NCBI GenBank assembly: GCA_963971425.1
Contig: OZ020519.1
Coordinates: 7,084,028 to 7,148,027 of the forward strand
Length of the DNA: 64,000 bases
Source: Bryoerythrophyllum caledonicum
Lineage: Eukaryota > Streptophyta > Bryopsida > Pottiales > Pottiaceae
Reading direction: 5' to 3'
Part shown: positions 11,441 to 42,640 of the stretch, one piece after another
Position numbering within the stretch: the stretch's first letter is position 1
Layout: each line of letters opens with the position of its first letter
Translations under genes and position numbers: made by a program
The notes under the pieces: model-generated
Seen by the model: only the letters and a program-made list of their open reading frames with translations
Databases searched by the model: none
What the model was told of the DNA's origin: nothing

Positions 11441-13940
11441 ATTCGTATCACTTCGATCTTGGTGAGTGTGCGATCATACGTTTTCTCTAAGTCGCGAGGG
11501 CTGGAATCTATGCCTAGTAAAGTTGATAAAGTCTTAGGGCCCATTTTAGATCGTTTCTAGAGTTGATTTGCTCGTGCATTTCTTCCAGTCAAGTATACGT
11601 CAGAGTACGACATCATGTATTGAACTTGGAGGTCCAGAGTTGTCCCTCGAATCCGAGGCACTCTCGGCGGTAGTGAAGTTTGGTTTTTATAGTTTATAAT
11701 TGTGGCTCATTCATGATTCGTATCAATGTGAGCATCACCTGTGTGCGTGCATTAGTCTTCCTAAACTCATGAGCGCTAGAATCTTTGCCGAGTAAAGGTG
11801 ATAGAATATTAGTGTTCAATTTAGATTACTAGTAGAGTTCGTTTGCTGGTGGAATGCTTTGAGTGAAGTTAAGGTGAGATTACAAAATCACGAACTGAAC
11901 TTGGAGGTCCGGAGTGGTCCCTCGGATCCGAGGCACTCTCGGTGGTAGTGAAGTTTGGTTTTTTTATTTTATGATTGTGGCTCATTCATGATTCGTATCA
12001 CTGTAAGCATCACCTGTGTGCGTGCATTAGTCTTCCTAAACTCATGAGCGCTGAAATCTTTGCTGAGTAAAGGTGATTGAATATTAGTGTTCATTTTAGA
12101 TTACTAGTAGAGTTCGTTTGCTCGTGGAATGGTTTGAGTGAAGTTAAGGTGAGATTACGAAATCACGAACTGAACTTGGAGGTCCAGAGTTGTCCCTCGG
12201 ATCCGAGGCACTCTCGGCGGTAGAGAAGTTTGGTTTTTATATTTTATAATTGTGGCTCATTCATGATTCGTATCACTCTGAGCATCACCTATGTGCGTGC
12301 ATTAGTCTTCCTAAACTCATGAGCGCTAGAATCTTTGCCGAGTAAGGGTGATAGAATCTTAGTGTCCATTTTTTATTTCTAGTAGAGTTTGTTTGCTCGT
12401 GCAATCCTTGAAATGAAGTTAAGGTGTGATTACGAAATCACGAACTGAACTTGGAGGTCCAGAGTTGTCCCTCGGATCCGAGGCACTCTCGGCGGTAGTG
12501 AAGTTTGGTTTTTTTATTTTATAATTGTGGCTCATTCATGATTCGTATCACTGTGAGCATCACCTGTGTGCGTGCATTAGTCTTCCTAAACTCATGAGCG
12601 CTAGAATCTTTGCCGAGTAAAGGTGATAGAATATTAGTGTTCAATTTAGATTACTAGTAGAGTTCGTTTTGCTCGTGGAATGCTTTGAGTGAAGTTAAGG
12701 TGAGATTACGAAATCACGAACTGAACTTGGAGGTCCAGAGTGGTCCCTCGGATCCGAGGCACTCTCGGTGGTAGTGAAGTTTGGTTTTTTTATTTTATGA
12801 TTGTGGCTCATTCATGATTCGTATCACTGTGAGCATCACCTGTGTGCGTGCATTAGTCTTCCTTAACTGATGAGCGCTGGAATCTTTGCCGAGTAAAGGT
12901 GATAGATTATTAGTGTTCATTTTAGATTACTAGTAGAGTTCGTTTGCTCGTGGAATGCTTTGAGTGAAGTTAAGGTGAGATTACAAAATCACGAACTGAA
13001 CTAAAAAGTTCTAGAGTGGTCCCTCGGATCGGAGGCAGTCTCGGTGGTAGTGAAGTTTGGTTTTTTTATTTTATAATTGTGGCTCATTCATGATTCGTAT
13101 CACTGTAAGCATCACTTGTGAGCGTGCATTCATCTTCCTAAACTCATGAGCGCTAGAATCTTTGCGGAGTAAAGGTGATAGATTATTAGTCTTCATTTTT
13201 TATTACTAGTAGAGTTCGTTTGCTCGTGGAATGCTTTCAGTGAAGTTAAGGTGAGATTACAAAATCACGAACTGAACTTGGAGGTCCAGAGTGGTCCCTC
13301 GGATCCGAGGCACTCTCGGTGGTAGTGAAGTTTGGTTTTTTTATTTTATGATTGTGGCTCATTCATGATTCGTATCACTGTGAGCATCACCTGTGTGCGT
13401 GCATTAGTCTTCCCAAACTCGTGAGCGCTGGAATCTTTGCCAAGTAAGGGTGATAGAATCTTAGTGTCCATTTTTTATTACTAGTAGAGTTCGTTTGCTC
13501 GTGGAATGCTTTGAGTGAAGTTAAGGTGAGATTACAAAATCACGAACTGAACTTGGAGGTCCAGAGTTGTCCCTCGGATCCGAGGCACTTTCGGCGGTAG
13601 TGAAGTTTGGTTTTTTTATATTATAATTGTGGCTCATTCATGATTCGTATCACTGTGAGCATCACCTGTGTGCGTGCATTAGTCTTCCTAAACTCATGAG
13701 CGCTGGAATCTTTGCCCTGTAAGGTTGATAGATTCTTAGTGTTCATTTTAGATTAGTAGTAGAGTTCGTTTGCTCGTGGAATGCTTTGAGTGAAGTTAAG
13801 GTGAGATTACGAAATCACGAACTGAACTTGGAGGTCCAGAGTTGTCCCTCGGATCGGAGGCACTGTTGGCCGTAGTGAAGTTTGGTTTTCTTATTTTATG
13901 ATTGTGGCTCATTCATGATTCGTATCACTGTGAGCATCAC
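11441..13940. repeat. 275-bp satellite array, left half
   Basis: The anchor ATTCGTATCA recurs at 11441, 11716, 11991, 12266, 12541, 12817, 13093, 13368, 13643 and 13918, a spacing of 275-276 bases. Each unit carries CCTCGGATCCGAGG, a perfect 14-bp palindrome, or a one-base variant of it. The first unit (11441-11715) is the most diverged, as expected at an array edge. The array stops exactly at the left end of the 26-kb element and resumes at its right end (40156), so it was one array before insertion. Confidence 0.95.
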
Positions 13941-13968
13941 AACACCATATTCATTATATTGGGAGATT
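13941..13968 (+). repeat. Left terminal inverted repeat
   Basis: 28 bases beginning AACACCATATTCATTATATT, identical to the reverse complement of 40128-40155. Just inside lies a small GGGAG/CTCCC inverted repeat (13960-13980) that is not conserved at the other end. Confidence 0.95.
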
Positions 13969-14137
13969 AGGAGCCTCCCAAAATAATATGAAAAACTTAA
14001 GCAAACCTAAATATGCAAATGTTGAGTGATTTGCATAGTAACCTTTGAATACTATCTTTCGAGTTAGGTGTCCACTAAAATGGGAGGTGCAGAATTATTT
14101 TCAATGTAAAATTAGGCTTGAAAGAAATTAAAGTACA

Positions 14138-14525
14138 TATTTAGCTTCAGTTAAGCTGAAAGCAAGCAACACTTACAACTCCAAATATATTTGAAAAACA
14201 AAAGATCAAATGTCAAGGTACGAAAATGCATTTCTCAAATCGAAACACACTATCAGCTCGAGTCGAGCTGAATGTGGCCCAACAATTCCTATGCGATAAA
14301 ACATTCAGAATAGTAAATATCAAACGGCAAATCATCAAGCCCAGAATTCACTTCTCTCCAAGAAGAAAGCCATACACATTCAGCTCGAGATCGAGCTGAA
14401 TGTGCCCAAGCAATTCCTATGCGATAAAACATTCAGCATAGCAAATAATAAAATATCAAAACTTTGAAATATATTAATCTCCACAAGAAATGGGTGTACA
14501 CTTTCAGCTCGATTCGAGCGAAAAT
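14138..14525. repeat. Left subterminal palindromes of the 26-kb element (4 copies)
   Basis: Imperfect palindromes around 14138-14160, 14251-14275, 14373-14404 and 14497-14525 are built on TTCAGCTCGA...TCGAGCTGAA. The first and last are worn. They lie between the left terminus and the 3' end of the transposase gene. Their subterminal position fits transposase-binding sites (inference). Confidence 0.7.
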
Positions 14526-14599
14526 CACGCCAACAAATTCCGATCTTATGCACACATTCTTGGATACTAGTATAAGAGTAACATCTTTGTACTAAAAAA

Positions 14600-17454
14600 T
14601 CATTGCGAAGAAGACAGCTCGGTATCCCTGATCAAACTATCTTGGATGATTTGAACTTGATTTCTAGGTATCTTCACAACAGGAAATTCACTCCTACTTC
14701 TAGACTTCCATGCAGTCAACAGAGATCCGGTGTCCTCCCATTGCGGAAGTTGCTCAACATCAATTGTCCATTGTAGACCGTTGGAAGAGGCCCATCCATC
14801 ATAGCATCTTTGGACATTTGCATCGCGCGAAGTGGGGCGGAAGTACTGTATTTTGATAGAATTAGGCCTTTCCAGATCCGAATTAGGGTCCGAGAGAGCT
14901 TGTGCAATCCAAACAGGACGTTCATCTCCATCACACGGTCTTAATGCAACAAAATAGCCTGAGTAAACGTCTCGATTAATCCGAAAAGAAGGGGCTGGCC
15001 TATCTCGACTCTGCCCAACAAAGTGGTCATCTTCATCATGATCCTCACGAACAGCGCCCACACTAGTGAATTGGTCCTCGATTGTCTGACCAATACGAGT
15101 AGAAGGCCAAAAACCATCCTGTAGAGAGGTGGGCAAGTCCATAGGTTGACTAAGTGACTCTCTAACTGCCCGCCAATAGTAGCTCAAAGGCTCATATCGC
15201 CTTCGATATTCACCTGTACGATCCTCACGTGCTTGATGCTCCCAATATGAAATGAATCCAGAAAGACCTTTAATCACTTCAGGAAGATTCCGCATTGCCT
15301 GTGGCTGCAATGAAGGTGGTTCTCCACGTGGCCATAAAGACCTCCCATTTGAATCCTCCTTCCACAATTTGATCCCACCCCCTTCTCTTGGAAGCCAATC
15401 ATCTTGATGACAAAGAATCTTGTATTTCATCATGGGACATCCGTTGGAGTCAACAAAGAATTTGAATTGGTGAGCCTTTGTGTGACCCTGCAATGCTTCG
15501 TCTCCACCAGCAATACCTTCACTAATAAAGGACTTGAAGTCCGGGACTTCTTCAATCAAGTGGGGAATTGTTGGCACACTTTCGTTCTCCATAAATGATC
15601 TCATGAGCAAAGGGATCGTGGGGAAACTCTCCTTCTTCAAAGCCATACTCCATCGACCGAATAATGCATCAATGTCATCATGTGTGTGTCCAACAAGCAT
15701 GAAATTAACATAAACCTCTCGAAAGATACCCTTTGCAACAAGAAGAGACCAAAAGCAAAACACATATCTATTTTTGTTGTCACTCACCGCATTGTCCATT
15801 TGCACATGCAAAATAGGCGGCAAAGGTTTTTCTATAGCTAGAGACTCAGGTGCGGCACGGAGGAATGGGACACAAGTATCTGAAGCACCTTGCAAAACAG
15901 CTCGAAACAATTCAGTTCTCCCTGAACCCTGAAATAATTGTTGGGACGATGTCTTCGAAGGTTGTTCTAAATCTCGCAACAATCTAGCAAAGGAGCCCAC
16001 TGTATAGTTGACATCATGTGGGTAAATGTCCAAGCCATAATGAGCATATCGAACATCGCCATGACCATGTGCAAGCATTCCAGTAACAGAGATGGGCAAC
16101 TTCATCAGACCATCCAAATGTTTCGTCTTGTGAGACAGGACAGGAGATGCAGTTTTTGAGTGATCCATCTTGTCGTGCATAATCGTAACACATTCATCCG
16201 GCAACTCTTGAGATCGGTAACGGTTGGAATAATACAACTCTCGATGAGCCCATGCTGAATCCAAATGGAGATTCAACCTTTGCTGCCACAATAGCGCAGC
16301 TTCTGTTCCAGGCTGCTGCAATCTCCGATGGGAATGGTACTTATCACACGTTGAACAACGTGCAAAGTTATCCCCAGGTCGTTTTCCATTGTAATCGAAA
16401 AAAGGACCCGCCTAATCTTACTCAGCCCTGAAGTGGAAATTTGGGAAAGCCCGCAATTAACTAAATGGGCATCAATTGCAGGAATTTGATCTTTCCACTT
16501 GAAATTTGCGGGAAGAACTTTGGCCACAGATGTCTCACCCGAAGGCAAGATGCGGGACTTGTGGGGCATGTGGTCAGCATTCCTATTAAGGATGACACGT
16601 AATGTTGCGGTAGCGACTACTGTGTAATTTCTAGGTTTCCGTTTCCCTGAATTTCCATGGGGTTGCGCGACTACACCAGCCGCTGCATCCTTGGCATATT
16701 CATAGAACAAGGTTTCACTGACGCCCATGATGTGCTGCCGGGCAGCTGCGCACACATCAACGCCCTCAATGGTCACCACATTTCTACCGTTATTGTCCAC
16801 ATGAAATTGTCCGTGAACATCTAGCTTCATATGCCTTCGAAATTGAACGGAGGTTCCAAAATACATCCTCATCCGCAATACCTTAATCTTCAATCGTGAG
16901 AAGCGTTGAACACAACTCCTGGAGCAACATCGTTTTCCAGCAACAGAGTTGATAGATTCGTCAGAGAGGAGAATTGATGATTTTGTTGAAACCATGGTTG
17001 AAGGGATCCTAGATGAACTTTCATAAGAGCGAGTCCTCTCTCCAAGAGACCGGGTTCTCATTGCCATTACAGAATTGTAAGTATCACGCTGCTGGTGATG
17101 CAAGAGACTGATACTATTATAGAAAACTTGACCAATAGGCCAAATCTTAACACAATAACGCCATTCATCCGGTGCTTCATCTTCAACTAATGTCCTGGAG
17201 ACCTGAATGGCAACATGTGTATCACCTAATGGAGCATCAATCCCAGAAATAGCCGTGGTGTGAAGGTTACGAAGTATTCCAGTGGCAATTGTAACACCGG
17301 ACAGGTTTTTCATTTCGACTATCTTACCAACCCAAGAATGCCTTGGGAGAACTTCGAATTCCGTCAAATCAGCATCTACTGGATTGTGGAAAGACGAGTT
17401 TTCATTTGACAAATCATAATCATCGTCGATTGAGGCACCAGTTGAAGTGTCCAT
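14600..17454 (-). pseudogene. DUF7869-like DDE transposase candidate of the 26-kb element, one frameshift
   Basis: Two overlapping frames form one protein of roughly 950 residues. The first (17454-16273) begins with an acidic N-terminus and holds a Cys cluster (GKRCCSRSC) typical of this family's N-terminal part. The second (to 14600) holds a further Cys pair read just upstream of 16321 (ARCSTCDKYH). It also holds the candidate catalytic acids HDKMDH (residues 49-54 of the second frame), HVQMDN (172-177) and GHTHDDID (211-218); the last two are the signature of DUF7869 proteins in mosses, algae and fungi. The frames are joined by adding one base in the A6 run at 16398-16403 (T6 on the coding strand). 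So the lesion is a single homopolymer change, or an assembly error there; otherwise the gene is intact. No in-frame stop was seen. It starts about 130 bases from a five-copy palindrome cluster that may be its control region. A transposase role is inferred from the acidic residues and from being the only such gene inside exact terminal repeats. Confidence 0.75.
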
Positions 17455-17588
17455 CTCGGCACTGCAAAGTTAAGGCGAAAGTGTAAATAATTGTTGTAGT
17501 ATAGTAGTACTCCAAGGATCATCCCACATCAATCAAAGAAAACAAAAAAAAGCATAATTGTTCACCTTCACGAATAGGTGAAAACAAA

Positions 17589-17758
17589 GCACATTTAGCT
17601 CGGGTCGAGCTGAATATGTAGTGCACATTCAGCTCGGGTCGAGCTGAATATGCAGTGCACATTTAGCTCGACCCGAGCTGAATATGCAGTGCACATTTAG
17701 CTCGACCCGAGCTGAATATGTAGTGCACATTCAGCTCGGGTCGAGCTGAATGTGCACT
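17589..17758. promoter_or_regulatory. Five tandem palindromes upstream of the transposase gene
   Basis: Five near-identical 30-34 bp units repeat in tandem with a period of about 34 bases. Their centres alternate between CTCGGGTCGAG and CTCGACCCGAG, separated by 'TGTAGTGCACAT' or 'TGCAGTGCACAT' spacers. They lie 130-300 bases upstream of the transposase start codon (minus strand). Regulatory function is inferred from position and from the similar cluster upstream of the gene at 32591. Confidence 0.6.
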
Positions 17759-17765
17759 GCGTCAA

Positions 17766-18185
17766 GCAAGAGTACTAAATGAAAACCTGAAGCACTCATA
17801 CCAACAAAAACTACGCATTTTGACAGTTGCATGAACATATATGTCATACTGACGTACAAATAATAAAATGAAGCCCTAAACCTGTACTACGGAGGCGATT
17901 GTGTTGACGCCGAAGTATCACCTCATTCCTACAACTTTTTCATTAGACCAAAATCTATGCATGTCCTTTAAAGTTGACCTAGAATAATGTATCCACTTCT
18001 TGCTAGAGTACTGAATCAAAACCTGAAGCACTCATACGAAGAAAAACTACGCCTTTTGACAGTTGCAAGAACATATATGTCATACTAACGTACAAATAAT
18101 AAAATGAATCCCAAAATCAGTACTAAGGAGGCAATCATGTTGACGCCGAAGTATCACCTCCTTCCTACAATTTTTTCATTATATT
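17766..18185. repeat. Tandem duplication, ~238-bp unit
   Basis: The block starting AGAGTACTAAATGAAAACCT at 17768 is repeated from 18006 (AGAGTACTGAATCAAAACCT) and stays recognisable through 'GTTGACGCCGAAGTATCACCT' to about 18175. The two copies differ by scattered substitutions. Confidence 0.75.
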
Positions 18186-18519
18186 GAAAATGATAGTATC
18201 AAATGTGCAAATCAAATGCCAAGTAAATCACCATAAAGTTTAGACAGAAATCACTTACAAATGGTCCGATTGCGTGCACCAAAACGTCTTGAATGAAGAA
18301 GGAAGAGAAAACCCTACTCTTTCTCACGGCCGCAGCAACCATTCACGACCACACACCTCCGCATCTCTAGAAATTCCAAACACAACTAAGTTGACCTAGA
18401 ATAATGTATCCACTTCTTGCACAGAAATTTGACTTCAAATGCAATAGGTCTTTCAAATGTCAAGGCATACTTCGAGACAGTATAGATTCACGAAGGCTTA
18501 CCATATCAGAAAGGTGCAA

Positions 18520-18520
<1 letters not shown>

Positions 18521-18550
<30 letters not shown>
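18521..18550. repeat. (GA)n microsatellite
   Basis: About 15 uninterrupted GA dinucleotides. Confidence 0.95.
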
Positions 18551-18554
<4 letters not shown>

Positions 18555-18899
18555 AGGTTGGGGTGTATTGACCACGTCGAACAAGTTGTCGTTAAGAAAA
18601 GAGCGGGAATGACATCACGTTTAGTGGGGAGGAGCTATTCTAAATAAAACATCTTTCAAACTTGACCAAAAAATTAACAAGCACGTAAGTTTCTCCTCAT
18701 ATCTGGATGTATTGGAAGTTTCTATTTACATGATCAATTTAAGGTTATCGATTGGGGTTATGGGTATCAATTTAAATATGCAAGAATCAATTTAAATTTA
18801 AGGTATAGAATTATGTATCAATTTAAGGTTATCAATTGGGGTTATGGATATTTGATTACGGTCATTTATATCCATATTTAGGATATTGATTATGACTAG

Positions 18900-19200
18900 A
18901 TTATAAAAATAAAGATTTAGGTTTAGGGTTGAAATTACATTTTGACATTTAGGGTTTAGGGTTTAAGGTTTAGGATTGCAAGTCCATGGTATGAAATGTA
19001 AATTATAGGGTTTAGGGTTTCGGACTAGACAATTCTAGAATTAGATTTATGGATTTGGGTTTAGGGTTTAGGTTTAAGGGTTTAGTTATTAGGGTTTAAG
19101 GTCTTATAGTTTATTGTTTAGGTTTAATGATTTAAAGATTAGGGTTCAGGGTTTTAGAGTTTTGTGTTTGGGATTTAGGATTAGGGTTTAGATTAGCATC
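18900..19200. repeat. Interstitial telomere-like TTTAGGG tract
   Basis: Degenerate repeats of the plant telomere unit TTTAGGG (and TTTAGGT, TTTAAGG variants) occur at about 18948-18975, 19000-19022, 19055-19100 and 19120-19195. They are mixed with AT-rich DNA inside the 26-kb element. Confidence 0.65.
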
Positions 19201-19328
19201 GAGATTACCACTGGAATCAAAATGTCCTTTCTATAAGATTGTTTATTGTATCAAAATTGAATTGTGCCTTGGTATTGATTTAAGAAAATTCATTACATAT
19301 CACCTAAATATAAGATTTAAGAAGTCAC

Positions 19329-20274
19329 TACACTAAAAGTTTCATTTACTATAATGGCACGAATAGTGTACTTACCGTAGTACACTAATTGCAAACAAGT
19401 TGACAAATAGTGTACTAATTGCAAACAAGTGTACTTTCTCAAAAGATTATTTGATCAAAATTTACATTATCCAAGATTACTTTATCGGAGTACACTTTAT
19501 GGAAATTTAATTTGTTTAAAACTTACTTTTTCAAGAGATTACTTTTTCAAGTTCTAGTTCTGAAAATTTTTACTTTTTCAAATTAGACTTTTTCAAACAT
19601 TTACTTTTTCAAAACCTTACTTTTTCAAAGCCTTACTTTTTCAAAACCTTACTTTTCAAAACTTTACTTTTTTCCAAGATTTCTTTTCAAAAGTTCACTT
19701 TTTCGAATCTTTACTTTTTCAAATGTTTATATTTTGGAAAGCTTTTTTTTACAAAAGTTTACCTTTGCAAAAGGTAAGTTGTCTTTTTTCCCCGAATTGA
19801 TGTTTTTTCCTAGTTCTTGTTTTTTTCAAAATGTTCTTTTTTCCTAATTGTTTTTTCCTAATTGTTGTTTTCGAAAAAATGTAGTTTTTTCCTATTTGTT
19901 TTTTTCTAATTGTTGTTTTCGCAAGAATTTAGTTTTTTCCTATTTGTTGTTTTCCCAAATTGTTGATTTTCCTAATTGTTGTTTTTTCCCAATTGTTGTT
20001 TTTTCCCAATTGTTGTTTTTTCCAATTTTTTCTTTGTGAGTTTTAGTTTTACTCTTCTTCACCTTTTAGTACACATAATTCTCATCTACTTTCAATACAC
20101 TAAACGTGCACGAGTAAAAAAGTTAATATTCCAATCTTTACAAAAGTCCACAAATAGTGTAGTAGTTCACATTTAGTGTACTATTTTGTCACTACACTAA
20201 TTGCGTAGTTGACAATTAGTGTATGGGTTCGTATTTAGTGTCCACTACACTAAATGAAACTTTTAGTGTACTTC
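19329..20274. mobile_element. Small non-autonomous TIR element inside the 26-kb element
   Basis: TACACTAAAAGTTTCATTTA (19329-19348) is matched exactly by its reverse complement (20255-20274). The right end also carries nested 'TACACTAA...TTAGTGTA' inverted repeats. The interior (19480-20035) is T-rich minisatellite: first CTTACTTTTTCAAAAC-type units, then TTTTTTCCTAATTGTTG-type units. A TA on both sides is compatible with a TA target duplication if the ends are read as CACTAAAAG; a CACTA-type alternative cannot be excluded. No coding capacity. Confidence 0.55.
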
Positions 20275-20814
20275 ATCTCATTTGTTATGAATCAATATTT
20301 ACTCCTTTGAGTTGACTTTGCTAGATGATCTTGTCTCATGCGATATTGATTCACTTGCTATTATTAATTTATGTGTTTTATAATTCAAATCATCTTTGAC
20401 CCTAAAGGCCCAAGAGTTCCCTCGAAGGATTCTATGAATTTTTGGAAGTTCCTATAGAGTCAATTTATAAGTTTTTTGGTGTCGGCTCTAATAGCGCATT
20501 CGTATCCTTTGATCGCAACATTATGCAATTGTCGCCATTATGGACATAAGTTTGAGTGCCTTCAATAAGTTATGATTGCAATGTTTATTAATGTCATTCA
20601 AACATATTGCAAGTTGATGTGTAACTTTGCGCACTTGCAAAAGTTTGGTTCCATCACTCTTCTCTTTATTGCAAATGGTACTACCTTACATATGCATTCT
20701 TTCACACAAAATTCATGCGTTACATATTATACATAAGTATTTTCTGAAAATGAGCCACATTGGGAGAACAAAAAGTTTGAGAAAAGTTGGGAAAGTGTAT
20801 ATGAAAATAATCAG

Positions 20815-21654
20815 TTGCAACCAATAACATCAACTGCTGTATTATTGCTGGATGAAAATACTATAATCAACAATAAAATATTGGATCCAAAAAACATATT
20901 ACTGAAAGAGGTTTTATTTATTTATATCCCAAAAATATGGGGAAACGATGTTGAATATCAAAGAACATTAGAGGCCGCAGATATATATTATCAGACCGCT
21001 CCATTTGTAGGAAAATCTAATCAAGAAGACCCAAAACGAGGTGTTTATAAGTCTGTAGGCCACGGCTATGTTGTCCATGTAGGAGAAAAGTCAAAAGGAG
21101 ATATCGTTCAGTATGATCGTAAAAACATGACTGAAGACACAAAACGTTCCTTGAGGGGCATAGGAAATTCTATTGCAACGGCAATGTGGAAGGCGTTAAA
21201 TTTATTTGGAGCTCTTGTAAAAGAGTTTTTTGTTCATCAATTTCAACATATGGATTGTATCGCAATTGGGTTGAAAGCATATCCAATAAAAGTGTACCAA
21301 TTGCACTTGTCAAAGAATTCTTTTATAAAGCGACATATTGATAAAAACGATTTGGATTGTTCATTTTTATGCTGGTTTACAGAAGGACATCCGCAAGGAG
21401 GCGAATTCGGAATTTTTCAACACTACATGAAACTTCAAAATAATAATGGAGCAGGTATATTTGTATTTAGCAAATATGTCAGCCACGGAATGCTACGGTT
21501 CGATGCCAATTCACTATCAACTAATAATTTCAAATTGGGCCTAGCCCTTGTGAACATATCAGCAATTCGTGAAAGGCTATCAAATCAACTAACAAGTAGA
21601 ACATCTATCACTTGGATAAATTATATTGATCACCTAGATAGTGAAAGTCAATAG
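20815..21654 (+). CDS. 2OG-Fe(II) dioxygenase-like protein, TET/JBP-like
   Basis: A 279-residue frame without introns. The C-terminal half has the layout of a 2-oxoglutarate/iron dioxygenase core: H174-x-D176 (RHIDKND), a GGEF turn at 195-198, a 'GAGIFVFS' strand, and a distal His at 224 (YVSHGM) followed 16 residues later by K240, where many members have the 2OG-binding Arg. That order (HxD, GGxF, distal H) is that of the TET/JBP group, which oxidises methyl groups on DNA bases and is known from giant fungal transposons. The frame is also open upstream of the ATG for about 80 bases (from ~20735), so the true start may be earlier or in an unseen exon. It lies inside the 26-kb element. The base-oxidising role is inferred; an AlkB-type or prolyl-hydroxylase-like enzyme remains possible. 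Confidence 0.5.
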   Translation: MQPITSTAVLLLDENTIINNKILDPKNILLKEVLFIYIPKIWGNDVEYQRTLEAADIYYQTAPFVGKSNQEDPKRGVYKSVGHGYVVHVGEKSKGDIVQYDRKNMTEDTKRSLRGIGNSIATAMWKALNLFGALVKEFFVHQFQHMDCIAIGLKAYPIKVYQLHLSKNSFIKRHIDKNDLDCSFLCWFTEGHPQGGEFGIFQHYMKLQNNNGAGIFVFSKYVSHGMLRFDANSLSTNNFKLGLALVNISAIRERLSNQLTSRTSITWINYIDHLDSESQ

Positions 21655-26400: not shown

Positions 26401-26476
26401 GGATTATTTCCTCCCTCCACATTAGCAGTTGCTATTGAGATTATGGAAAGAGGACCCAAAATGGGCCATAACTTGT

Positions 26477-26640
26477 CGGTTATGAACGGGTGAGAGAACG
26501 ATGGGAATCATGAGAACAGAGAAGGGAGCGATGCGAACAGCAAAGCAGGAAAAGTCGGTTATGAACGGGTGAGGGAACAGTGGGAATAATGAGAACAGAG
26601 AAGGGAGGGATGCGAACAGTGAAGCAGGAAAAGAAAAGGA
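26477..26640. repeat. Two tandem copies of a 78-bp unit
   Basis: The unit beginning CGGTTATGAACGGGTGAG occurs at 26477 and again at 26555. Both copies include 'ATGAGAACAGAGAAGGGAG' and 'AAGCAGGAAAAG'. Confidence 0.8.
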
Positions 26641-26689
26641 ACAAATTTGGGAACAGACGAGGGAACACTGCGAACGGCGGTATTCAATC

Positions 26690-26770
26690 ACTACACTAAT
26701 TGTGTAGTTCACAATTAGTGTACGTGTTTGTATTTAGTGTTCACTACACAAAATGCGAATTTTAGTTTAA
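26690..26770. repeat. Second, truncated copy of the 19.3-20.3 kb TIR element end
   Basis: CACTACACTAATTGTGTAGT, then 'ACAATTAGTGTA', 'TATTTAGTGT' and a final 'TTTTAGTTTA', parallel 20190-20274 with substitutions. This shows the small element has, or had, more than one copy here. Confidence 0.6.
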
Positions 26771-26869
26771 TCTATATCTATAAAAGAATACAAGATGACA
26801 AATGAACGCGCCGATGGATGAACGCGCCGATGAAAATTGAGCTCCGTGGATGAAAACAGAACTTTTGGA

Positions 26870-28720: not shown

Positions 28721-28721
28721 C

Positions 28722-31590: not shown

Positions 31591-31889
31591 GTTATACGGG
31601 TTCACCTTGGGATGAAATCCTTGTGATGTTGTAATTTATTGTAAGTTGGGAGTTGGTAGGTTTTTAAGTTGTAGAGTTTCGGCCACTCATCTTAGTTTTG
31701 AGTTTCTAATAGTGATTGGATTACGATTCAAAGAGGGGACATTTTGTCACTGAAGCAGCTCTTTTGTGTGACATACCTCAAGCCATTTGTTTGAAGAATC
31801 AAGAGGCTGCAAAAAATGGAAACGAGGTACGTAGATTCCTACGGCACTTGCAATTTGAATGAATTTTGTAATTTCTCATTCATATAATT

Positions 31890-32510
31890 TGTGCATATTC
31901 AGCTCGAGTCGAGCTGAATATGCACAATTGGTTGATCACGAGATGCATATTCAGCTCGGGTAGAGCTGAATGTGCACGTTCAGCTTTGAATGATGTTTAT
32001 ATTCAACTCGATTCGAGCTGAATGTGCAGCGTATGATGAGCTTTGTGTGCACATTCAGCTCGGGTAGAGCTGAATGTACACGTTCAAGTGTGAATCATGT
32101 GCATATTCAACTTGACTCGAGTGGAATGTGTAGTGAATGATGAGCTTTTAGTGCACATTCAGCTCGACTAGAGCTGAATATGCACTTCCGGCTCATTAGT
32201 GTGTGCGCAAGTGATTGATCATAATGTGCACATTCAGCTAGAGTCGAGCTGAATGTGCATCGAAATTTCAGCTATGTGCACATTCAGCTCGACTCGAGCT
32301 GAATATGCATGTTCAGTTCATTAGTTCATGGATGTAAAATTAATATTAATCAGCACATTCAGCTCGACGAAAGTTGAATGTGCAATAGAAATGGTAAAAT
32401 ACTTCAAACACACGCAAGTGGTAATGCAAAAACTTAAAACTTAATGAAGAAATCACATCTATGCAATTCAATGTTGTATTGCATATTTAGCTCGATGCGA
32501 GCTGAATATG
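31890..32510. promoter_or_regulatory. Cluster of ten palindromes upstream of the ParB/methyltransferase-like gene
   Basis: Imperfect palindromes near 31898, 31945, 31998, 32049, 32100, 32152, 32226, 32277, 32352 and 32480 have the form GCAYATTCAGCTCG...CGAGCTGAATRTGC, the best being fully symmetrical (for example at 32277). They fill the 700 bases before the ATG at 32591. A regulatory or protein-binding role is inferred from placement. Confidence 0.6.
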
Positions 32511-34009
32511 CATACTTGAGGAAAATTGTAATGCATTAAGTACGTAAAATAAAAATCTAAGTTTACTTACGACTCCATTGCAGAAATCCAATGAATGACC
32601 AAGAGGTCCTAGAGCAATACTATAGACCAACAAGTATTGTGATTGAGTTCGACGACGGAGAGGAGCACGAGCTACTCAACTGCTACGAGCATCGAGATTG
32701 AGAGAGGCATGAGGCGTGGGGGTTCGAACATATCGGTCACTCTAACAGCCTGGTGTTGACTCACAAATTTCGAGGCATGGATATGTTCTTGCACGTTTCA
32801 TCAAATGAGAAGATAATCGAGTTTGACCACCACAAGAAGTTTCTCGTGGTTAAAAGTGAGACGACAACTGGAAACAATCTTCAGTACACGGTTCTCATCG
32901 ACTACATGACTCAAGTCTTCAGCCTTGATCCATTTCTCGACAGCATTGAGAATTCATTGTTTGAGTCAATAAAGAAGGACGTCCTCAAACAATAAGATGA
33001 AGATTACTGGAAGAGCAGCATTGGTGGTCCTCTTCACGCTAAAGCTTTGTCATCCAAGTTGACAAGTCTCCTCCATGCAATGGCAATGAAGGTTCTTCAA
33101 AACTCGCAGACCTCATCCGAGATGACTCTAGTAGAGGTCTCTCGTAGAACCGAGAGTGGCATCGTTAGCCAAGGCGGTACCACTGGTCAAAGGACTGCAA
33201 CGGCTCGAACAAGTAAGGCAAATCCGAGGAAGTCGTTGTCTGTAAACCCAACGCCACCGAAGAGGCAGCGTCGATCACTTGTTCCGGAGGCTTCAACTCG
33301 AAGAGTACTAAAAACTAGTGTAAAAAACCAAGAAGCTGGAACGCAAAACGGTGAGGCCAGCATGGTCTCTGCGATCACCGATCTGCCGCACGAGTTGCGT
33401 CCTGGAGAAGCCATTGACTACGGAAATGCATCCGAGGTATACGAAAAGTTCTGGACAGATTGCCAAGACTGCTTCCTCTACGACCCTAACATGAAGAAGG
33501 AGCTGGACGTGCGGCAGTTATCACCAGCACCAGAGGACTGGACGATTCGGGCCTTTGAAAAGAAAGGCATGGACGTGGTAATGAATTACCTCATTCACAT
33601 GCCCGATAAATCCATCAAGCAAACGCTTTGCGTAATGCCGATAACAAACAAGAAGCCAGATGGAGACTGGGAAGACATTCGAAAGGGAAAGTTCTACATC
33701 ATAAATGGCCAACATAGCGTGGCGGCAAGCTTAGCAATGATGGCAGATGAATCTATTGATGAGACCACAGTAAGACACTTTCGCGTATGGAAGTGCTTTG
33801 TCGTATGGTCCGATGACAAAGAGAAGCTGCGTAAGATCTCGGCATTCTACAACCGAGTCAATCACTTGTCCGTCTTCAAGCCAACGTGGTCGACCAACAT
33901 CCTGTCTGCACGGTCGACATGGACCAATCTAGGTCGCCCAACACCACCACAGAAGAAGAATACGCCGGGTGGTCGTGGAGCACCAAGAGCCAACGACAAG
34001 GCGTATAAG

Positions 34010-34298
34010 GTAAGGAATTCGGATTGCGAATGCATATTTAGCTCGACTCGAGCTGAATATGCAAACCCTTGCGAATGCATATTCAGCTCGACTCAAGCTA
34101 AATATGCAAACCCTTACGAATGCATATTCAGCTCGACTCGAGCTGAATATGCAAACCATTGCGAATGCATATTCAGCTCAACTCGAGCTGAATATGCAAA
34201 CCTTTGCAAATGCATATTTAGCTAGAGTCAAGCTGAATATGCACATCCATGTCAACAATTGTTCACTTTTACTAACACTATTGTTTTGCCTCCTACAG
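34010..34298 (+). other. Intron 1 of the ParB/methyltransferase-like gene, holding five palindromes
   Basis: GTAAGG donor and CCTACAG acceptor, phase 0. Between about 34028 and 34245 it holds five copies in a row of the element palindrome (GCATATTCAGCTCGACTCGA type), with about 44-base spacing and 'AACCCTTGCGAAT'-type linkers. Confidence 0.8.
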
Positions 34299-35657
34299 GA
34301 GTTCATAGAGGCCATTCAACGTCGATTTGCCTGCATTGACGTTCAAAAGAACCAGCAGTATGCTAGCAAATCTAGTCAGGTTCTTCAGCTGACTCTCTCA
34401 AATGAGATCAAGATTATCACGTCGCCTGATTCCACTTTCAATCTTTGGCGAGATGTGATGGCCGCAAGTGCTCAAGGCGACTTGATTGACGTTGACACCA
34501 ACCCCCTTTGCAAATTCAAAGACAACCTGAAGTTGACGACAACGAAGGATGGTGGTCTGAATCGAGAGTTTTTCAAGTGGCTCAATGGCCTCACTGATGC
34601 AGATCATGTGAAGTTGTTGAACCACATTTTAAACCGCAGCGGACCAAAATGGCGACTGCAGTACCCGAAGGTGGTCATCAAGACACCAACCAGCGTATTG
34701 GATAGTAACTACACGGCTTGGAAATGGATCGAGCGGCGCAAGAGAAAGAACGTCGTCCGAAGGGAGTTGCAAAAAGTGAAGCCTAGTCTTGCATTTTTTG
34801 ATGCAAACAAAAATTTGGTTCCTGGAAATTGGAAGTGTTTTAAGCGTGAATATCACGTCTCATCCGCAACCATGAGGGTGCTTGTCGATCAACCCGGTGA
34901 GGCATTCTTCACTGAGGCGCGACAGCTTCGGAGCAAGAACAAGTCTGCGGAGGAGCTATCGCCATACGCGAAAGCTTGGTTTAAGTTGTTCTTGGACAAG
35001 CGCCAACACTTTCAAGAAGCGTCCGGGTCTGCATACATTCGGAAGTACAACATCATCAATGATGCGTTGGGTGTGTGGCCCGAAAACACATGGGATCCCC
35101 ACGGCGAAAAGCCTCGGCTTGCATTAATCGATTTCAGATCAGCTCCCGGGCAAGATTTGAAGCCATCATCAACGGTGGCTAACCCATTCTTCAAGGACTT
35201 CATGGAGGCATTGCGGACTGGAGGCAGCCCTTGATTGACAGACCCTGATGTCTGGCTATGGATATGTGGGACCAAGTCAGAGGAGAGGCAAGTCTTCTCC
35301 ATAATCGAGAAGTCCCCATTTGTGGACGAATATGTGACATACAGTTCCGCATACATTCCTGGTAAGTATGAGCGGCTCGATGATCTGCCGACAGGCAACA
35401 AGTTGTCAAAAGATTCTGTGGAACTTCTTTGGCTAGTCCGTAAGCCATTTGCTCGCCCAAACTCAGTTACAAAGGAATATGTCTATCCGCTTCATGTTGC
35501 AAACACCAAGGCCCGCAAGTACAACGAGTTGGAGTATCGTGTAAACACTACTGAGTTCACGATGGAATTCTACTTTCAAGTACTCAAAGAATGGTGCAAA
35601 CCCGGGGACTTAGTCTTCTCTGCCTTTGGAGGCTCAAAGTTTCTTATTGCATCTATG

Positions 35658-35860
35658 GTACGAATTCTGTCGAGCTCTCATGTTTGCATATTCAGTTTGA
35701 CTTGAAAATGAATATGCAAGTGCTTCTAGATCATTAGTTCTGAGTTGCATATTCAGCTCGACTCGAGCTGAATATGCAAGTAGTGTAGTTTCATAGAATG
35801 CAAATATATGTCGCTTGAGTGAATTTGATTGATTGCTAGTGTCTCTGGTGTGCCTTGCAG
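35658..35860 (+). other. Intron 2 of the ParB/methyltransferase-like gene, holding two palindromes
   Basis: GTACGA donor, TTGCAG acceptor, phase 0. One worn palindrome (about 35684-35716) and one perfect one (about 35748-35780) lie inside. Introns of this gene are thus repeatedly occupied by the element's palindrome. Confidence 0.75.
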
Positions 35861-36931
35861 ATCGAATCTCTAGGGTGTGCCTGCATCTGCGAGACTTCCG
35901 AGAGTGATCGGTACGAAAGCAAGGCAAAGTTGGCTTTGTCTCTATGCAAAGCGGATTTCGTTGCCGACGGTTATCCGGTTGACGTGACAAATTATCTTGT
36001 AAAGCCCCCTCGTGGTAAGGGTAAGGGAAAGAGACGAGTTGATGACGATGATGATAATGAGGAAGATGATGATGAACAACCTGCTGTGGATGTTACGAGG
36101 TCAGATGTTGCGGTAGCTGAGCCATCAGACCCCGCTTCTGCTCGCGTTAATGAAGGCGCAGATACTGGTGTATTCTGTGCGAATGATTATGAGGATCTTG
36201 CTCTTCGTCGGTCTAGTGTGATTGCAGGTGGTGCTGGTCCATCCAACAATCGGTCGCAGAGTAGGGCTGATTCCTCAGGTGGAAATACTGACGATGACGT
36301 TGAAGTGATGGCTTCTGCACCAACGCCCCCGCACAAGCGCCAACGAACTCCTGTGATGGTTAACTCGCCCGCGCTATCCACGTCTCCTCCCACGGCACAA
36401 GCCGATATGGCATTGAAGGTCGAGATGCTCTTAAAGAAGGTCGAGGAGCAAGAGAGGCTCAACCAAGAGTTGTCAAGACGGCAGGAAGAGCGCCAAGATG
36501 AGCTCCTTGCAGCGCAGAGGGCCGACATGGAGCGGAACACGCAAGCGATGATCGCTTCTATGCTTGCAAGATTTGAACAGATGTTGCCACCGCAATCCAA
36601 GCCGATAGAGCATATTTTTGGTGCAACTCCTGAGGCGGCTGCAAGACCATCGTCTCAAGGCCCTACTGTTATAGAGACGGTCGCCTCGTTTGGAGAGACG
36701 TATGTCCAACAGTCTTTGTTGACATCGGATCCGAAGACGTCTTCTCCTCTTTCACCGCCACTAGCGATAGCCTATGTTGGAGCCGAGCGCATGGTTTCCG
36801 CCGATCCCAGTGTTCAGCCAAACAATGTGATCCCGGTGGAAGAGACAGAAGTTGCTTATGAAGTCAACACACCGAGCAACACTCAAGCATCTCCAGAACA
36901 CTCTTCAGGTGGAATTCTCGATGAGAACTAG

Positions 36932-37482
36932 TACATCGAGTATTCTTGTTGTTGTTAATTGTGTTTCCCCAATTATTTTCGAATATTAACTTCTGTTCGA
37001 AAATAATCTTGGATGTTTATTGTCCTTCTAAACCTTAGTTGAGTAAATTCGATGTTGCTTCCGTTTCGAATCTCCTTAATCACTTCCCTTTGATGTATAT
37101 TGTTTTTCTCTTGATCCATTTTTTTTTTTTTTTTAGACTACACTTAAGTTGAAGTAAATGTACTCCAGATAAGTAGTAGTATATCTCTCTATGTTTTGTT
37201 TCGTTTAGTCCTTCTCCTAAAGTCATTGTTACTTTTATTGCATATTCAGCTCGGCTCGAGCTGAATATGCATTACTTTTGTATATCTTCTTGTTCTCCCT
37301 CAGTGTGCATCATGTTGAAATTCAAGTAGTCCTCTCCCTTGTGTGCATCCAATTGTTGAGTACTCATACACTTGCACAGTCAATTAGAGTCGAGCTCAAT
37401 GTTGATCCTGTTTAGTATCAACTGTCGTTGCATTTTCGGGCATGTTTGTTCATAACCTATAATTAAATTTTCTGCATTTCAG
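36932..37482. other. Spacer between the methyltransferase-like and FCP1-like genes
   Basis: No frame was supported. It holds one nearly perfect palindrome (about 37240-37271, TTCAGCTCGGCTCGAGCTGAA-type) and poly-T at about 37119-37134. The first exon of the FCP1-like gene may be hidden here, because the exon at 37483 begins inside a codon. Confidence 0.5.
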
Positions 37483-38537
37483 ATGCCCTAAGCCTCGAAG
37501 TCGATTTCATAAAAGATGATGCTGGCTCTTCTGAGCATCCTCCTATGGTTGGTGCAAAGCCCATTGATGCTACTTTGGCCATCAACTCACAGGTATAACT
37601 TTAATCTCACCACTTCATGGCCATATTGATTGTGCTGTCTTTTGCAGTGCTTCCTTCTTCGTATAACATTTTGTGCTCTTTTGTTATATATTGTTTAATG
37701 TTTAGTAACATGTACCTCCACTCTTTCTCATATGAATTCCAGGTAGTCGAGCCTCTGGAGAGCGTTCATAGCGCCGTAGTTCATGTTCCTCGTTCAACCC
37801 CTAGAGTGGTCAAACCGTGGTTAAACATTGTGTTTGACTTGAACGGTATATTGTGTGTGTGTGAGGAATTCCGCTTGAGGTCTGCTACGCAAGCCTTCAA
37901 TGCATGTTCTCTACCACACTCGGTAAAAGTTCCAGCCAAGGTCGGCCCAAAGCTAGTGTATGTTCGTCCAGACTGCAAGGCATTTTTGGACGCTATTTCC
38001 AAGTTTGCATCAATATCGGTCTGGAGTTCGATGAAATTGAACACCACTAGTAGCATCGTCAATTACCTCTTCCCAAAATCGGCCTCACCAAAAGTCATAT
38101 TTGGGCAAGAGCATTGTAGGAGAGTCGTAACTGCTCTGATCCATAATGTACCTCAATATTTGAAGGTTAAGAACTCGGATAAGGAGGTATTTCTGAAGAC
38201 GTTGTCGAAAGTCCTATTTACTGAAAAGGGTGTCTCCTTTACGAAGGAGAATACCATCATCATAGATGACAGTCCGTATAAGCACGTCCTTAATGATCCG
38301 GAGAATGTGCTTCTTTCGGATACTTGGTCCTACAAAGGAGATGGTTGGAACGATAAGTTCCTCCTGAATGTCTTGCTTCCATGGCTCCAAAAGCTCCACA
38401 GTAGTGCAGAGTTAGGGCTGCAATCTTTTCGGTGTGAGAATCCCTTTGGTCGTCTGACAATTTGCTCGGATCCATATAGCTTAGAGTACATGGAATTAAC
38501 GCACGCGATTATGATATCTGATGGGCTCGCAAATTAG
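37483..38537 (+). CDS. FCP1/NIF-type HAD phosphatase-like protein (5' end not found)
   Basis: Two exons are clear: 37483-37592 and 37743-38537 (GTATAA donor, TTCCAG acceptor, phase 0). The second holds an FCP1-homology domain. Its motif I region reads NIVFDLNGILC, where active FCP1-type phosphatases have DxDxT. Next come SVWSSM as motif II, then IIIDDSPYKHVL as motif IV, and a C-terminal DTWSYKGDGWND block. Replacement of the second motif-I Asp by Asn is seen in a plant FCP1-like subfamily and argues against classical phosphatase activity. The frame contains no stop or shift, unlike its upstream neighbour. It lies 550 bases downstream of the methyltransferase-like gene on the same strand, within the 26-kb element. 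Partners are unknown; origin by capture of a host gene is inferred. Confidence 0.72.
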
Positions 38538-38742
38538 AAGTTCTCTGGTATCAATCATAAATATGTTGGTGTGTTATACTATACATATCTTGTAAGTCAA
38601 GTGGCAGTTGCCAGTTCTTTGATATTTATTTGTAATTTTTCGTTTGTTATTGTTGGATTTGTAAGTATTTGTTTTCTCTTTGCTTCCATGTTTGAAAAAG
38701 AGCCGTTAATCTATTTCTCACATAAACTATTGTATTGCCACC

Positions 38743-39783
38743 ATGGATTCTGTTTTGAAGTCAGAAGATTATGGATATCAAATTCCACGTAATCATAACG
38801 ATTTGTACTCCCGCGGAGCAGCTGATTATTCGATGGACTCTTCGATGGCTCCAGTTGAAGAAGATGAAGTAAACAGCCCGCCACCTAAATTTTGCATTCG
38901 AAAGGTTGCCTCCCATTCTATTCTTCAACCTCGTCAAATTTTGGTGTCCCCCGGTGTTGATAGGATTTGTCGAAAAGGTGACCAACTGCTTGTTCGCGGA
39001 CGTGAGGAATCATTGTCTCTTCCCCCGCGTAGCATGGTATTCCCCCCCTCCCCTTCTCTGTATTTGTCCTAAGTTTTTTTTGGCAATCTGCACATTCAGC
39101 TCAAATTGAGCTAAATATGCACAAGTTGCATTTTAACTCTCTTTGTCCCTACGTCATAGGATCACGTACTTCAAACACTTGCTGGTGTAATTCAACCACC
39201 TACGACGGTGCCGTCTGAGAAAATGCCCACAATTTCTACAACGTGTCGCCCTGTTTCAACGGTCGGAATTGATGAAAACAAGATTCAATCTCTAAGTGAG
39301 AAAACGCATTCTAATATTGAGGTTGGTCTTATTTTTTGTTATTGTTTAGTATGTGTTGTATCTTCTCCTCTTAATCATCATTGTTTTGAGTTTGCATGAT
39401 TCACGAACACCTAAATTGGACATGATTATTGAATGGATTCCACTTCATGGTGTTTGTGTTTTTTTTACATGTGTGGCTACATATTGAGCTTGGTTTTAGC
39501 TGATTTTTGTGGTCTCTTTTGCTAGGTGCTTCAACCGACTATAGAGCGTCAAAGTGCTTCCCCAAAGCATGGTTTAAACCAAAACTCAAAGCGTCACTCT
39601 CGTCGTCGCCACTCGCTTCCTGTGCCTATTGTTACTTGGAATCAACGAATGCAACGACAACGACAGCAGGAACATATACGTGCTAGTCAAATGCCATATA
39701 CCGGTTACAGCCGCAAAGATGAACTTCAAAGGGGTAGAGATGAGCTGAGGAAGTCTAATTCAGGTGACGTGGAGAAGAACTAG
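38743..39783 (+). CDS. Unknown basic protein, three exons
   Basis: The start ATG has a strong context (GCCACCATGG). Exons 38743-39036, 39160-39321 and 39526-39783 join by GT-AG introns, all in phase 0, and end at TAG, giving about 237 residues with no break. The first exon is acidic and Ser/Pro-rich. The last is strongly basic (KRHSRRRHS, QRMQRQRQQE), suggesting nucleic-acid binding or nuclear location, but no domain is recognised. Intron 1 contains one worn palindrome of the element family (about 39090-39121). The gene is the rightmost one in the 26-kb element and is co-directional with the two upstream genes. Clean splicing and an intact frame argue that it is real. Confidence 0.6.
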
Positions 39784-40127
39784 TAGATTTATGATCTGAG
39801 TGGTACAAGTGCACATTTAGCTTGGCTATACCAGAATGTGCATTGACTAGGAATCAATGTGTATGTCTTTGGTCGTAGTAGAAGCCTTTTTCTGCATGGA
39901 AAGGATGATGCATGTTTTGTATATGGATTACTTCTATCATATTATAAATACAGTCTACAATTAAAGATATTATTTCATTTGATTCTACAATTTGGGTACT
40001 CTTTGCCCATACATCTTCATATTATCTTACAAAGTGGTGTTGTACTTTTATTCTAATCATGATTTGCTTCATCACTACGGTAAAATATTTGGATTACTCA
40101 AGAACGCGTACCTCCTAAATCCCTGGA
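39784..40127. other. Right subterminal region of the 26-kb element
   Basis: A worn palindrome (GCACATTTAGCTTGG...CAGAATGTGC, about 39811-39842) is the last of the family before the terminus. The rest is AT-rich with no gene. Confidence 0.6.
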
Positions 40128-40155
40128 AATCTCCCAATATAATGAATATGGTGTT
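40128..40155 (-). repeat. Right terminal inverted repeat
   Basis: Reverse complement identical to 13941-13968 over 28 bases; ends in GGTGTT at 40155 and is followed by the target duplication TCAC (40156-40159). Confidence 0.95.
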
Positions 40156-42640
40156 TCACCTGTGAGCGTGCATTAGTCTTTCTAAACTCATGAGCGTTAG
40201 AATCTTTGCGGAGTAAAGGTGATAGATTATTAGTGTTCATTTTTTATTACTAGTAGAGTTCGTTTGCTCGTGGAATGCTTTCAGTAAAGTTAAGGTCAGA
40301 TTACAAAATCACAAACTGAACTTGGAGGTCGAGAGTGGTACCTCGGATCCGAGGCACTCTCGTAATAAGTGAAGTTTGGTTTTTTTTTTTATGATTTAAG
40401 CTCCTTGATGATTCGTATCACTGTGAGCATCACCTATGTGCGTGCATTAGTCTTCCTAAACTCATGAGCGCTGGAATCTTTGCCGAGTAAAGGTGATAGA
40501 TTATTAGTGTTCATTTTAGATTACTAGTAGAGTGTGTTTGCTCGTAGAATGCTTTGAGTGAAGTTAAGGTGAGATTACGAAATCACGAACTGAACTTGGA
40601 GGTCCAGAGTTGTCCCTCGGATCGGAGGCACTCTCAGTGGTAGTGAAGTTTGGTTTTTTTATTTTATGATTATGGCTCATTCATGATTCGTATCACTGTG
40701 AGCATCACTTGTGTGCGTGCATTAGTCTTCCTAAACTCATGAGCGCTGGAATCTTTGCAGAGTAAAGGTGATTGAATATTAGTGTTCATTTTAGATTACT
40801 AGTAGAGTTCGTTTTGCTCGTAGAATGCTTTGAGTGAAGTTAAGGTGTGATTACGAAATCACGAACTCAACTTGGAGGTCTAAAGTTGTCCCTCGGATCC
40901 GAGGCAGTCTCGGTGGTAGTGAAGTTTGGTTTTTTTATTTTATGATTGTGGCTCATTCATGATTTGTATCACTGTGAGCATCACCTGTGTGCGTGCATTA
41001 GTCTTCCTAAACTCATGAGCGCTAGAATCTTTGCGGAGTAAAGGTGATAGATTATTAGTGTTCATTTTTTATTACTAGTAGAGTTCGTTTGCTCGTGGAA
41101 TGCTTTCAGTAAAGTTAAGGTCAGATTACAAAATCACGAACTGAACTTGGAGGTCGAGAGTGGTCCCTCGGATCCGAGGCACTCTCGTAATAAGTGAAGT
41201 TTGGTTTTTTTATTTTATGATTGTGGCTCATTCATGATTCGTATCACTGTGAGCATCACCTATGTGCGTGCATTAGTCTTCCTAAACTCATGGGTGCTGG
41301 AATCTTTGCCAAGTAAGGTTGATAGAATCTTAGTGTCCATTTTTTATTACTAGTAGAGTTCATTTGCTCGTGCAATGCTTAGAGTAAAGCTAAGATGAGA
41401 TTTCAAAATCACGAACTGAACTTAAAGGTCTAGAGTGGTCCCTCGGATCGGAGGCACTCTCGGTGGTAGTGAAGTTTGGTTTTTTTATTTTATGATTGTG
41501 GCTCATTCATGATTCGTATCACTGTGAGCATCACCTCTGTGCGTGCATTAGTCTTCCTAAACTCATGAGCGCTGGAATCTTTGCCGAGCAAAGGTGATAG
41601 AATATTAGTGTTTATTTTCGATTACTAGTAGAGTTCGTTTGCTCGTGGAATGCTTTGAGTGAAGTTAAGGGGAGATTACGAAATCACGAACTGAACTTGG
41701 AGGTCCAGAGTTGTCCCTCGGATCCGAGGCACTCTCGTAATAAGTGAAGTTTGGTTTTTTTTTTTATGATTTAAGCTCCTTGATGATTCGTATCACTGTG
41801 AGCATCACCTATGTACGTGCATTAGTCTTCCTAAACTCATGAGCGCTGGAATCTTTGCCGAGTAAAGGTGATAGATTATTAGTGTTCATTTTAGATTACT
41901 AGTAGAGTGTGTTTGCTCGTAGAATGCTTTGAGTGAAGTTAAGGTGAGATTACGAAATCACGAACTGAACTTGGAGGTCCAGAGTTGTCCCTCGGATCGG
42001 AGGCACTCTCGGTGGTAGTGAAGTTTGGTTTTTTTATTTTATGATTATGGCTCATTCATGATTCGTATCACTGTGAGCATCACTTGTGTGCGTGCATTAG
42101 TCTTCCTAAACTCATGAGCGCTGGAATCTTTGCCGAGTAATGGTGATAGATTATTAGTGTTCATTTTAGATTACTAGTAGAGTTCGTTTGCTCGTGGAAT
42201 GTTTTGAGTGAAGTTAAGGTGAGATTAGGAAATCACGAACTGAACCTAGAGGTCCAGAGTTGTCCCTCGGATCCGAGGCACTCTCGATGGTAGTGAAGTT
42301 TGGTTTTTTTTTTTTATGATTGTGGCTCATTCATGATTTGTATCACTGTGAGCATCACCTGTGTGCGTGCATTAGTCTTCCTAAACTCATGAGCACTGGA
42401 ATCTTTGCCGAGTACGGGTGATCGAATCTTAGTGTTCATTTTAGATTACTAGTAGAGTTTGTTTGCTCGTGGAATGCTTTGAGTGAAGTTAAGGTGAGAT
42501 TACGAAATCACGAATTGAGCTTGGAGGTCCAGAGTTGTCCCTTGGATCGGAGGTACTCTCGGTGGTAGTGAAGTTTGGTTTTTTTCTTTTTTGATTTTAG
42601 GTCGTTGATGATTTGTATCACTGTGAGCTTAATGAGTGTA
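40156..42640. repeat. 275-bp satellite array, right half, with higher-order structure
   Basis: The anchor ATTCGTATCA or ATTTGTATCA recurs at 40411, 40686, 40962, 41237, 41512, 41786, 42061, 42336 and 42611. Variant marks repeat with a five-unit period of 1,375 bases: the 'CTCTCGTAATAAG ... ATGATTTAAGCTCCTTGATG' unit ends at 40411 and at 41786, and the next unit carries GAGTGTGTTTGCTCGTAG both times. The array is therefore organised in higher-order repeats. Each unit carries the CCTCGGATCCGAGG palindrome or a one-base variant. Confidence 0.95.

What the first reader, a model, noticed from the sequence alone, without database searches (positions are those of the whole stretch)
13937..40159. A 26.2-kb cargo-carrying DNA transposon caught inside a satellite array, with base-exact ends
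The sequence shows 28-bp perfect inverted ends, a TCAC duplication on both sides, and satellite text that becomes continuous when the element and one TCAC are removed. Few giant plant transposons are delimited this cleanly. The 4-bp duplication and AACACCATATTC ends do not match any superfamily I can name, and the only transposase candidate inside is a DUF7869-like protein. This may define a new superfamily or subfamily of giant DNA transposons.
Basis: seen in the sequence. Interest (0 to 1): 0.95.

Follow-up and report, generated by a model that had tools for sequence, protein, structure and literature searches.

The report
Giant moss transposon with palindrome arrays
The 26-kb insert is a real cut-and-paste jumping gene of what is most likely a moss, one of a large family that includes many near-identical copies with unbroken transposase genes; it probably belongs to a known broad class (Sola), but it carries a second conserved gene and family-specific arrays of DNA palindromes that look like binding sites for one of its own proteins.

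Summary
In detail: window 13941-40155 (26,215 bp), 28-bp perfect inverted ends, TCAC duplication, and a 275-bp satellite that becomes continuous when the flanks are joined. Seven more copies read end to end, and three more whose ends I predicted and then read, carry the same 12-base end; 10 of these 11 elements have exact 4-bp duplications, as do 11 of 12 short derivatives (MITEs). The 12-base end occurs 2,578 times in the genome; a control pattern 33 times.

Two corrections. Much of the 'cargo' is a core second gene (ORF2, ending in an NIF-type phosphatase domain), paired with the DUF7869 transposase, both reading outward, at 50 of 73 transposase loci. A new superfamily is not needed: a DDD-type transposase, 4-bp duplications and a moss host fit the published description of Sola, though I could not compare with a named Sola protein.

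The new part is regulatory anatomy: 13-34 copies per element of a family-specific palindrome (shared core CTCGA-N-TCGAG) upstream of both genes and in ORF2 introns, almost never in coding sequence. This resembles the VANC/VANDAL anti-silencing design. Binding and function are inferred.

The parts
13941..40155 (.). whole element, 26,215 bp
13937..13940 (.). target site duplication TCAC, left copy
40156..40159 (.). target site duplication TCAC, right copy
13941..13968 (+). terminal inverted repeat, 28 bp, transposase-side end
   Evidence: same end type in other copies
40128..40155 (-). terminal inverted repeat, 28 bp, ORF2-side end
14606..17454 (-). DUF7869 (PF25273) transposase gene, single exon, broken by one frameshift near 16400
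   Evidence: AlphaFold model of its C-terminal 603 aa
32591..34009 (+). ORF2 exon 1 (two in-frame stops, residues 37 and 135); exon borders read by eye from splice sites
34299..35657 (+). ORF2 exon 2 (one in-frame stop, residue 785)
35861..36933 (+). ORF2 exon 3, weakly matched to relatives
37818..38510 (+). ORF2 last part: NIF/FCP1-type phosphatase domain (PF03031)
   Evidence: 2.2e-17; collinear with P0122
14252..14523 (.). two palindromes 3' of the transposase gene
17594..17750 (.). array of five palindromes directly upstream of the transposase gene
31898..32506 (.). array of ten palindromes directly upstream of ORF2
34037..34237 (.). array of five palindromes in ORF2 intron 1 (intron 34010-34298)
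35752..35772 (.). palindrome in ORF2 intron 2 (intron 35658-35860)
37245..37265 (.). palindrome between ORF2 exon 3 and the NIF part
39095..39115 (.). palindrome 3' of ORF2
20737..21654 (+). 305-aa ORF of unknown function in the AT-rich middle, present in 11 of 50 paired elements
30964..31560 (+). fragment of a CtBP/2-hydroxyacid-dehydrogenase-type gene in three reading frames, probably a captured host gene piece
   Evidence: part of it shared with element H
11496..13940 (.). 275-bp satellite array, left of the insertion
40156..42628 (.). 275-bp satellite array, right of the insertion

Best explanation
The element is one copy of a large family of giant cut-and-paste DNA transposons of a plant that is most likely a moss. 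Shown: exact inverted ends, 4-bp target duplications, many copies with related ends, a transposase of DDD layout at one end and a second large gene (ORF2) at the other, both reading outward, a variable middle, short end-only derivatives, and arrays of a family-specific palindrome in non-coding parts of both genes. Inferred: the DUF7869 protein cuts and joins the ends, also for the MITEs; an element-encoded protein, most likely ORF2's, binds the palindromes and controls, or keeps unsilenced, the element's own genes; the palindromes and that protein have changed together between families. By transposase layout, duplication length and host it is most likely a giant relative of the Sola superfamily.
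Confidence: 0.82

Rival explanations
1. The DUF7869 elements form their own superfamily, distinct from Sola and every other named group.
For: No held paper names DUF7869; a two-gene giant architecture with palindrome arrays is not in any passage that I read; ends AACACC.
Against: The published Sola description (DDD transposase, 4-bp duplication, 11-1124 bp inverted ends, most 2-9 kb but some over 15 kb, found in Physcomitrella; PMC10741241 passages) fits on the points that I could test.
Confidence: 0.2
2. It is Lanisha, the superfamily proposed by Maumus, McDaniel and Carey (Repbase Reports 2020).
For: The authors of the proposal (reference list) include McDaniel and Carey, whom I recall as moss geneticists working on Ceratodon; 12 of 17 ORF2 relatives carry Ceratodon locus tags UG or VG, which I read as U and V chromosomes. 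That Lanisha is enriched there is my recollection only.
Against: [quoted passage not shown] No CxxC lies anywhere after D206 in P0001, though an H(3)H does at 310. The CMCT group mostly has CA..TG ends; these elements have AACACC.
Confidence: 0.1
3. The palindromes are not regulatory sites but parasitic or structural repeats, or sources of small RNA, that persist only where coding sequence does not select against them.
For: They are inverted repeats that spread in tandem; avoidance of exons alone could be purifying selection.
Against: They sit in like places (upstream of both genes, introns of ORF2) in three families, with one shared core and differing arms, and were not found elsewhere in the window. 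A genome-wide count could not be had.
Confidence: 0.35
4. An assembly join or a chance pair of ends.
For: Repeated satellites flank both sides, which is where assemblies fail.
Against: Ten other copies (seven read in full, three at their ends) with their own flanks, nine of them with exact 4-bp duplications.
Confidence: 0.01

Closest known systems
Sola superfamily of DNA transposons
   Same: DDD transposase, 4-bp duplication, inverted ends within 11-1124 bp, occurs in a moss, some over 15 kb (PMC10741241, passages)
VANDAL21/Hiun with VANC anti-silencing proteins (Arabidopsis)
   Same: [quoted passage not shown] PMC10398659, abstract)
   Different: VANC21 motifs are 9-mers in the same orientation; here palindromes of about 21 bp; no sequence relation of the proteins tested; a different transposase class (VANDALs are Mutator-like: recalled)
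Lanisha (Repbase Reports 2020)
   Same: proposed cut-and-paste superfamily by authors that I recall as moss workers
   Different: reported EnSpm-like C(2)C/H(3-4)H transposase (PMC12730594, passages); the C(2)C is not seen here
TET/JBP-carrying transposons of fungi (KDZ and others)
   Same: DNA transposons that carry an extra enzyme gene beside the transposase (PMC12730594, passages)
   Different: the extra gene here has an NIF phosphatase domain; my by-eye idea that the 305-aa ORF is TET-like has no HMM or PDB support

Membership tests
Sola | DDD-type transposase | tested here: met
   D83, D206, D248 invariant in 50 sequences, placed as in RNase H transposases in the model; the fold matches themselves are middling and catalysis was not tested
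Sola | 4-bp target site duplication | tested here: met
   10 of 11 elements and 11 of 12 MITEs
Sola | terminal inverted repeats in the published range | tested here: met
   28 bp against 11-1124 bp (PMC10741241)
Sola | transposase sequence similarity to a named Sola transposase | not testable with these tools
   no Repbase or Dfam sequences at hand; Pfam calls it only DUF7869
[quoted passage not shown]
   no CxxC anywhere after D206 of P0001; H(3)H present at 310; motif definition from PMC12730594 passages; assumes that D206 is the second D
Lanisha | sequence match to the Lanisha record | not testable with these tools
   record not held
VANC-type anti-silencing (works like) | motif arrays in non-coding regions of the element | tested here: met
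   5 of 228 palindromes in protein-matching stretches, 73 expected
VANC-type anti-silencing (works like) | different motifs in different families | tested here: met
   G's arms differ clearly; W/H and A-F differ at two mirrored positions; core CTCGANTCGAG shared
VANC-type anti-silencing (works like) | element protein binds the motif and removes methylation | not testable with these tools
   needs gel shift and methylome data

The most novel reading that the evidence does not exclude
A giant moss transposon lineage has independently evolved a self-recognition system: a large second protein with an NIF-type phosphatase domain recognises element-specific palindromes placed at both promoters and in its own introns, keeps the element active against host silencing, and has changed its palindrome together with itself between families. 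This would be a bryophyte counterpart of VANC, unrelated in origin, and would help to explain how elements of 18-34 kb reach dozens of near-identical copies with open frames.
Probability: 0.35. Interest if true: 0.82.

Novelty: new variant of a known kind. Interest (0 to 1): 0.62.

Why it matters
I know of few plant DNA transposons of this size with exact ends and many copies whose transposase frames are open (recalled, not searched exhaustively). If the palindrome arrays are binding sites, these elements allow a direct test of whether sequence-specific anti-silencing arose more than once in plants, with natural motif variants for swap experiments. The family also supplies thousands of ends and many short derivatives to the genome, and 12 of 17 ORF2 relatives found carry Ceratodon UG or VG locus tags, which I read as sex chromosomes.

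Tried and rejected
ORF2 as ParB-like plus DNA-methyltransferase-like: I read an 'INGQHSVAAS' and a 'GDLVFSAFGGSK' motif by eye, but Pfam, NCBIfam, PHROGs and PDB searches supported only the NIF/phosphatase part (15 of 17 members in Pfam). Pfam also listed a weak MHCassoc_trimer match in 13 of 17 members (best 0.0027), which I take as spurious. The fold prediction failed. Those labels are dropped. The 305-aa ORF as TET/JBP dioxygenase: no support; four homologs in the protein database. Viral relatives: none in three viral scans. Prokaryote genomes: the exact 28-bp end gave nothing; one transposase hit, in a cyanobacterial bin, read as probable moss contamination; that contig also carries the A-type palindrome. 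Six of 13 fetched end pairs (C1 13680992/13697132, 13769904/13797821, 14718922/14752955, 4695033/4702503, 4703343/4754456, 7735986/7740763) were not single elements. A genome-wide palindrome count, a search for the parent of the CtBP-like fragment and a genome search with the 28-bp end were asked for and never answered.

Literature: searches were run. No held paper names DUF7869; one search found none; searches matched 194 and 2,282 papers, of which I saw only the 15 and 10 listed titles and abstract starts, none on these elements. So absence from print is not shown. The original Sola, Lanisha and Ceratodon sex-chromosome papers were not readable here; what I say of them beyond quoted passages is recalled.

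Full report
Observation. The element occupies 13941-40155. Its first 28 bases equal the reverse complement of its last 28, TCAC stands on both sides, and removing the element with one TCAC gives continuous 275-bp satellite.

Other copies. That it is a moss is inferred from the closest named proteins (Ceratodon, Physcomitrium). The 12-bp end occurs 1283 + 1295 times, control 19 + 14. Of the 100 places listed, 42 form 21 short pairs by my count: 4 of 404 bp, 7 of 163 bp, 10 of 237 bp. I fetched 13 longer pairs. Seven are complete elements of 18.0-33.9 kb (A 18,997; B 18,960; C 18,918; D 18,031; F 19,913; G 33,913; H 33,820 bp), and six are not single elements. These seven were picked by the exact 12-bp end, so that they share it is by construction; beyond it the families differ (A-F have a G at base 13, G departs after base 16). 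Duplications: window TCAC, B TAAT, C CATC, D CATG, F ACTT, G AGGG, H CTGT, all exact; A shows CTCTG against CTCT. For three further copies I predicted the ends from the window's offsets, read only those places, and found both ends and exact duplications (TTAT, CTTT, TTTA; lengths about 22.9-23.1 kb). So 10 of 11 elements have an exact duplication. Among 12 MITEs 11 do; L040 does not, and the two 404-bp copies are not independent, since they share flanks.

Families. A, B, C, D and F are one family (mostly 80-97% identical, some stretches about 75%). H is closest to the window copy among those read in full (94-95% in its outermost 4.0 and 5.8 kb, 81-95% in shared inner parts, the rest of the middle unshared). 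G is distant (its transposase matches the moss protein P0003 at 38-54%).

Two core genes. In the window copy and the seven others read in full, the DUF7869 gene sits at one end and ORF2 at the other, both pointing outward. Genome-wide, 50 of 73 scored transposase loci, the window's included, have ORF2 in this geometry within 60 kb, 42 of them 12-18 kb apart, against 4 pairs in other geometry; 23 have no partner. Both hit lists are lower bounds, since only best candidates are scored. 21 of 73 transposase loci have an open frame of 950 aa or more without a stop in the match; several lie on short contigs and could be duplicates of the assembly. The window copy has a frameshift in the transposase and three stops in ORF2. 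ORF2 is collinear with a 1587-aa Ceratodon protein. Its only credible recognised domain is NIF/FCP1 (PF03031). Of its 17 database relatives, 12 carry Ceratodon locus tags UG or VG.

Palindromes. At up to 4 mismatches the window element carries 25 copies of a palindrome around TTCAGCTCGA(C/G)TCGAGCTGAA, A-F carry 31-34 copies of TTTAGCTCGA(C/G)TCGAGCTAAA, H 28 of the window type, and G 13 of TTTATCCTCGANTCGAGGATAAA. In 20 shuffles each of W, A and G the motif turned up 0, 0 and 1 times in all. The W and A types differ at two mirrored positions and cross-match in part; the G motif matches neither at 2 mismatches. They cluster just upstream of both genes and in ORF2 introns; G has fewer and also some in its middle. 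Of 228, 5 fall in stretches that match the proteins, where about 73 are expected by length; in W and H these lie past the intron 1 donor. None lies elsewhere in the window. I could not get a genome-wide count.

Middle. The window copy has no counterpart in H at 20746-24304, 26681-28179 and 28549-31265. The 305-aa ORF (20737-21654) has 93 matches in the genome, some in frames up to 554 aa. It lies in 11 of 50 paired elements, in 10 of them 4.3-4.9 kb and in one 10.8 kb from the transposase start, in all 11 in ORF2's direction (with 43 of the 93 hits; one search added the other 50, no further element). At 30964-31560 there is a fragment of a CtBP-like dehydrogenase gene, probably captured from the host; ANGUSTIFOLIA as its parent is recalled, not shown.

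Mechanism. Shown: ends, duplications, copies, gene order, palindrome placement. Inferred from known families: cut-and-paste by the DDD protein, MITEs moved in trans. Inferred by analogy with VANC (PMC5735166, passages; PMC10398659, abstract): palindromes as family-specific sites for an element protein that controls or un-silences both genes. The transposase itself could be the binder instead.

Verdict. A real, well-bounded giant transposon family; most likely Sola-like; its regulatory anatomy is the new and testable part.

Noticed in passing
window 48613-52646: Copia-type gag and pol reading frames with integrase and reverse transcriptase domains.
   Followed up: no
window 1-1636: The left edge of the window is a repeat also found inside element G (86-93%).
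   Followed up: no
window 23986-24835: An 850-bp stretch inside the element is 92% identical to a stretch in element F of another family: probably a separate nested repeat.
   Followed up: no
window 18949-19191: Degenerate TTTAGGG-like telomere-type repeat inside the element.
   Followed up: no
window 58109-58696: ORF with a weak Pre-SET match (5.2e-4, below the family's cut-off).
   Followed up: no
L056 1-4327: A contig in a cyanobacterial metagenome bin encodes a DUF7869 transposase (67% identical) with A-type palindromes upstream: probably moss contamination in that bin.
   Followed up: partly
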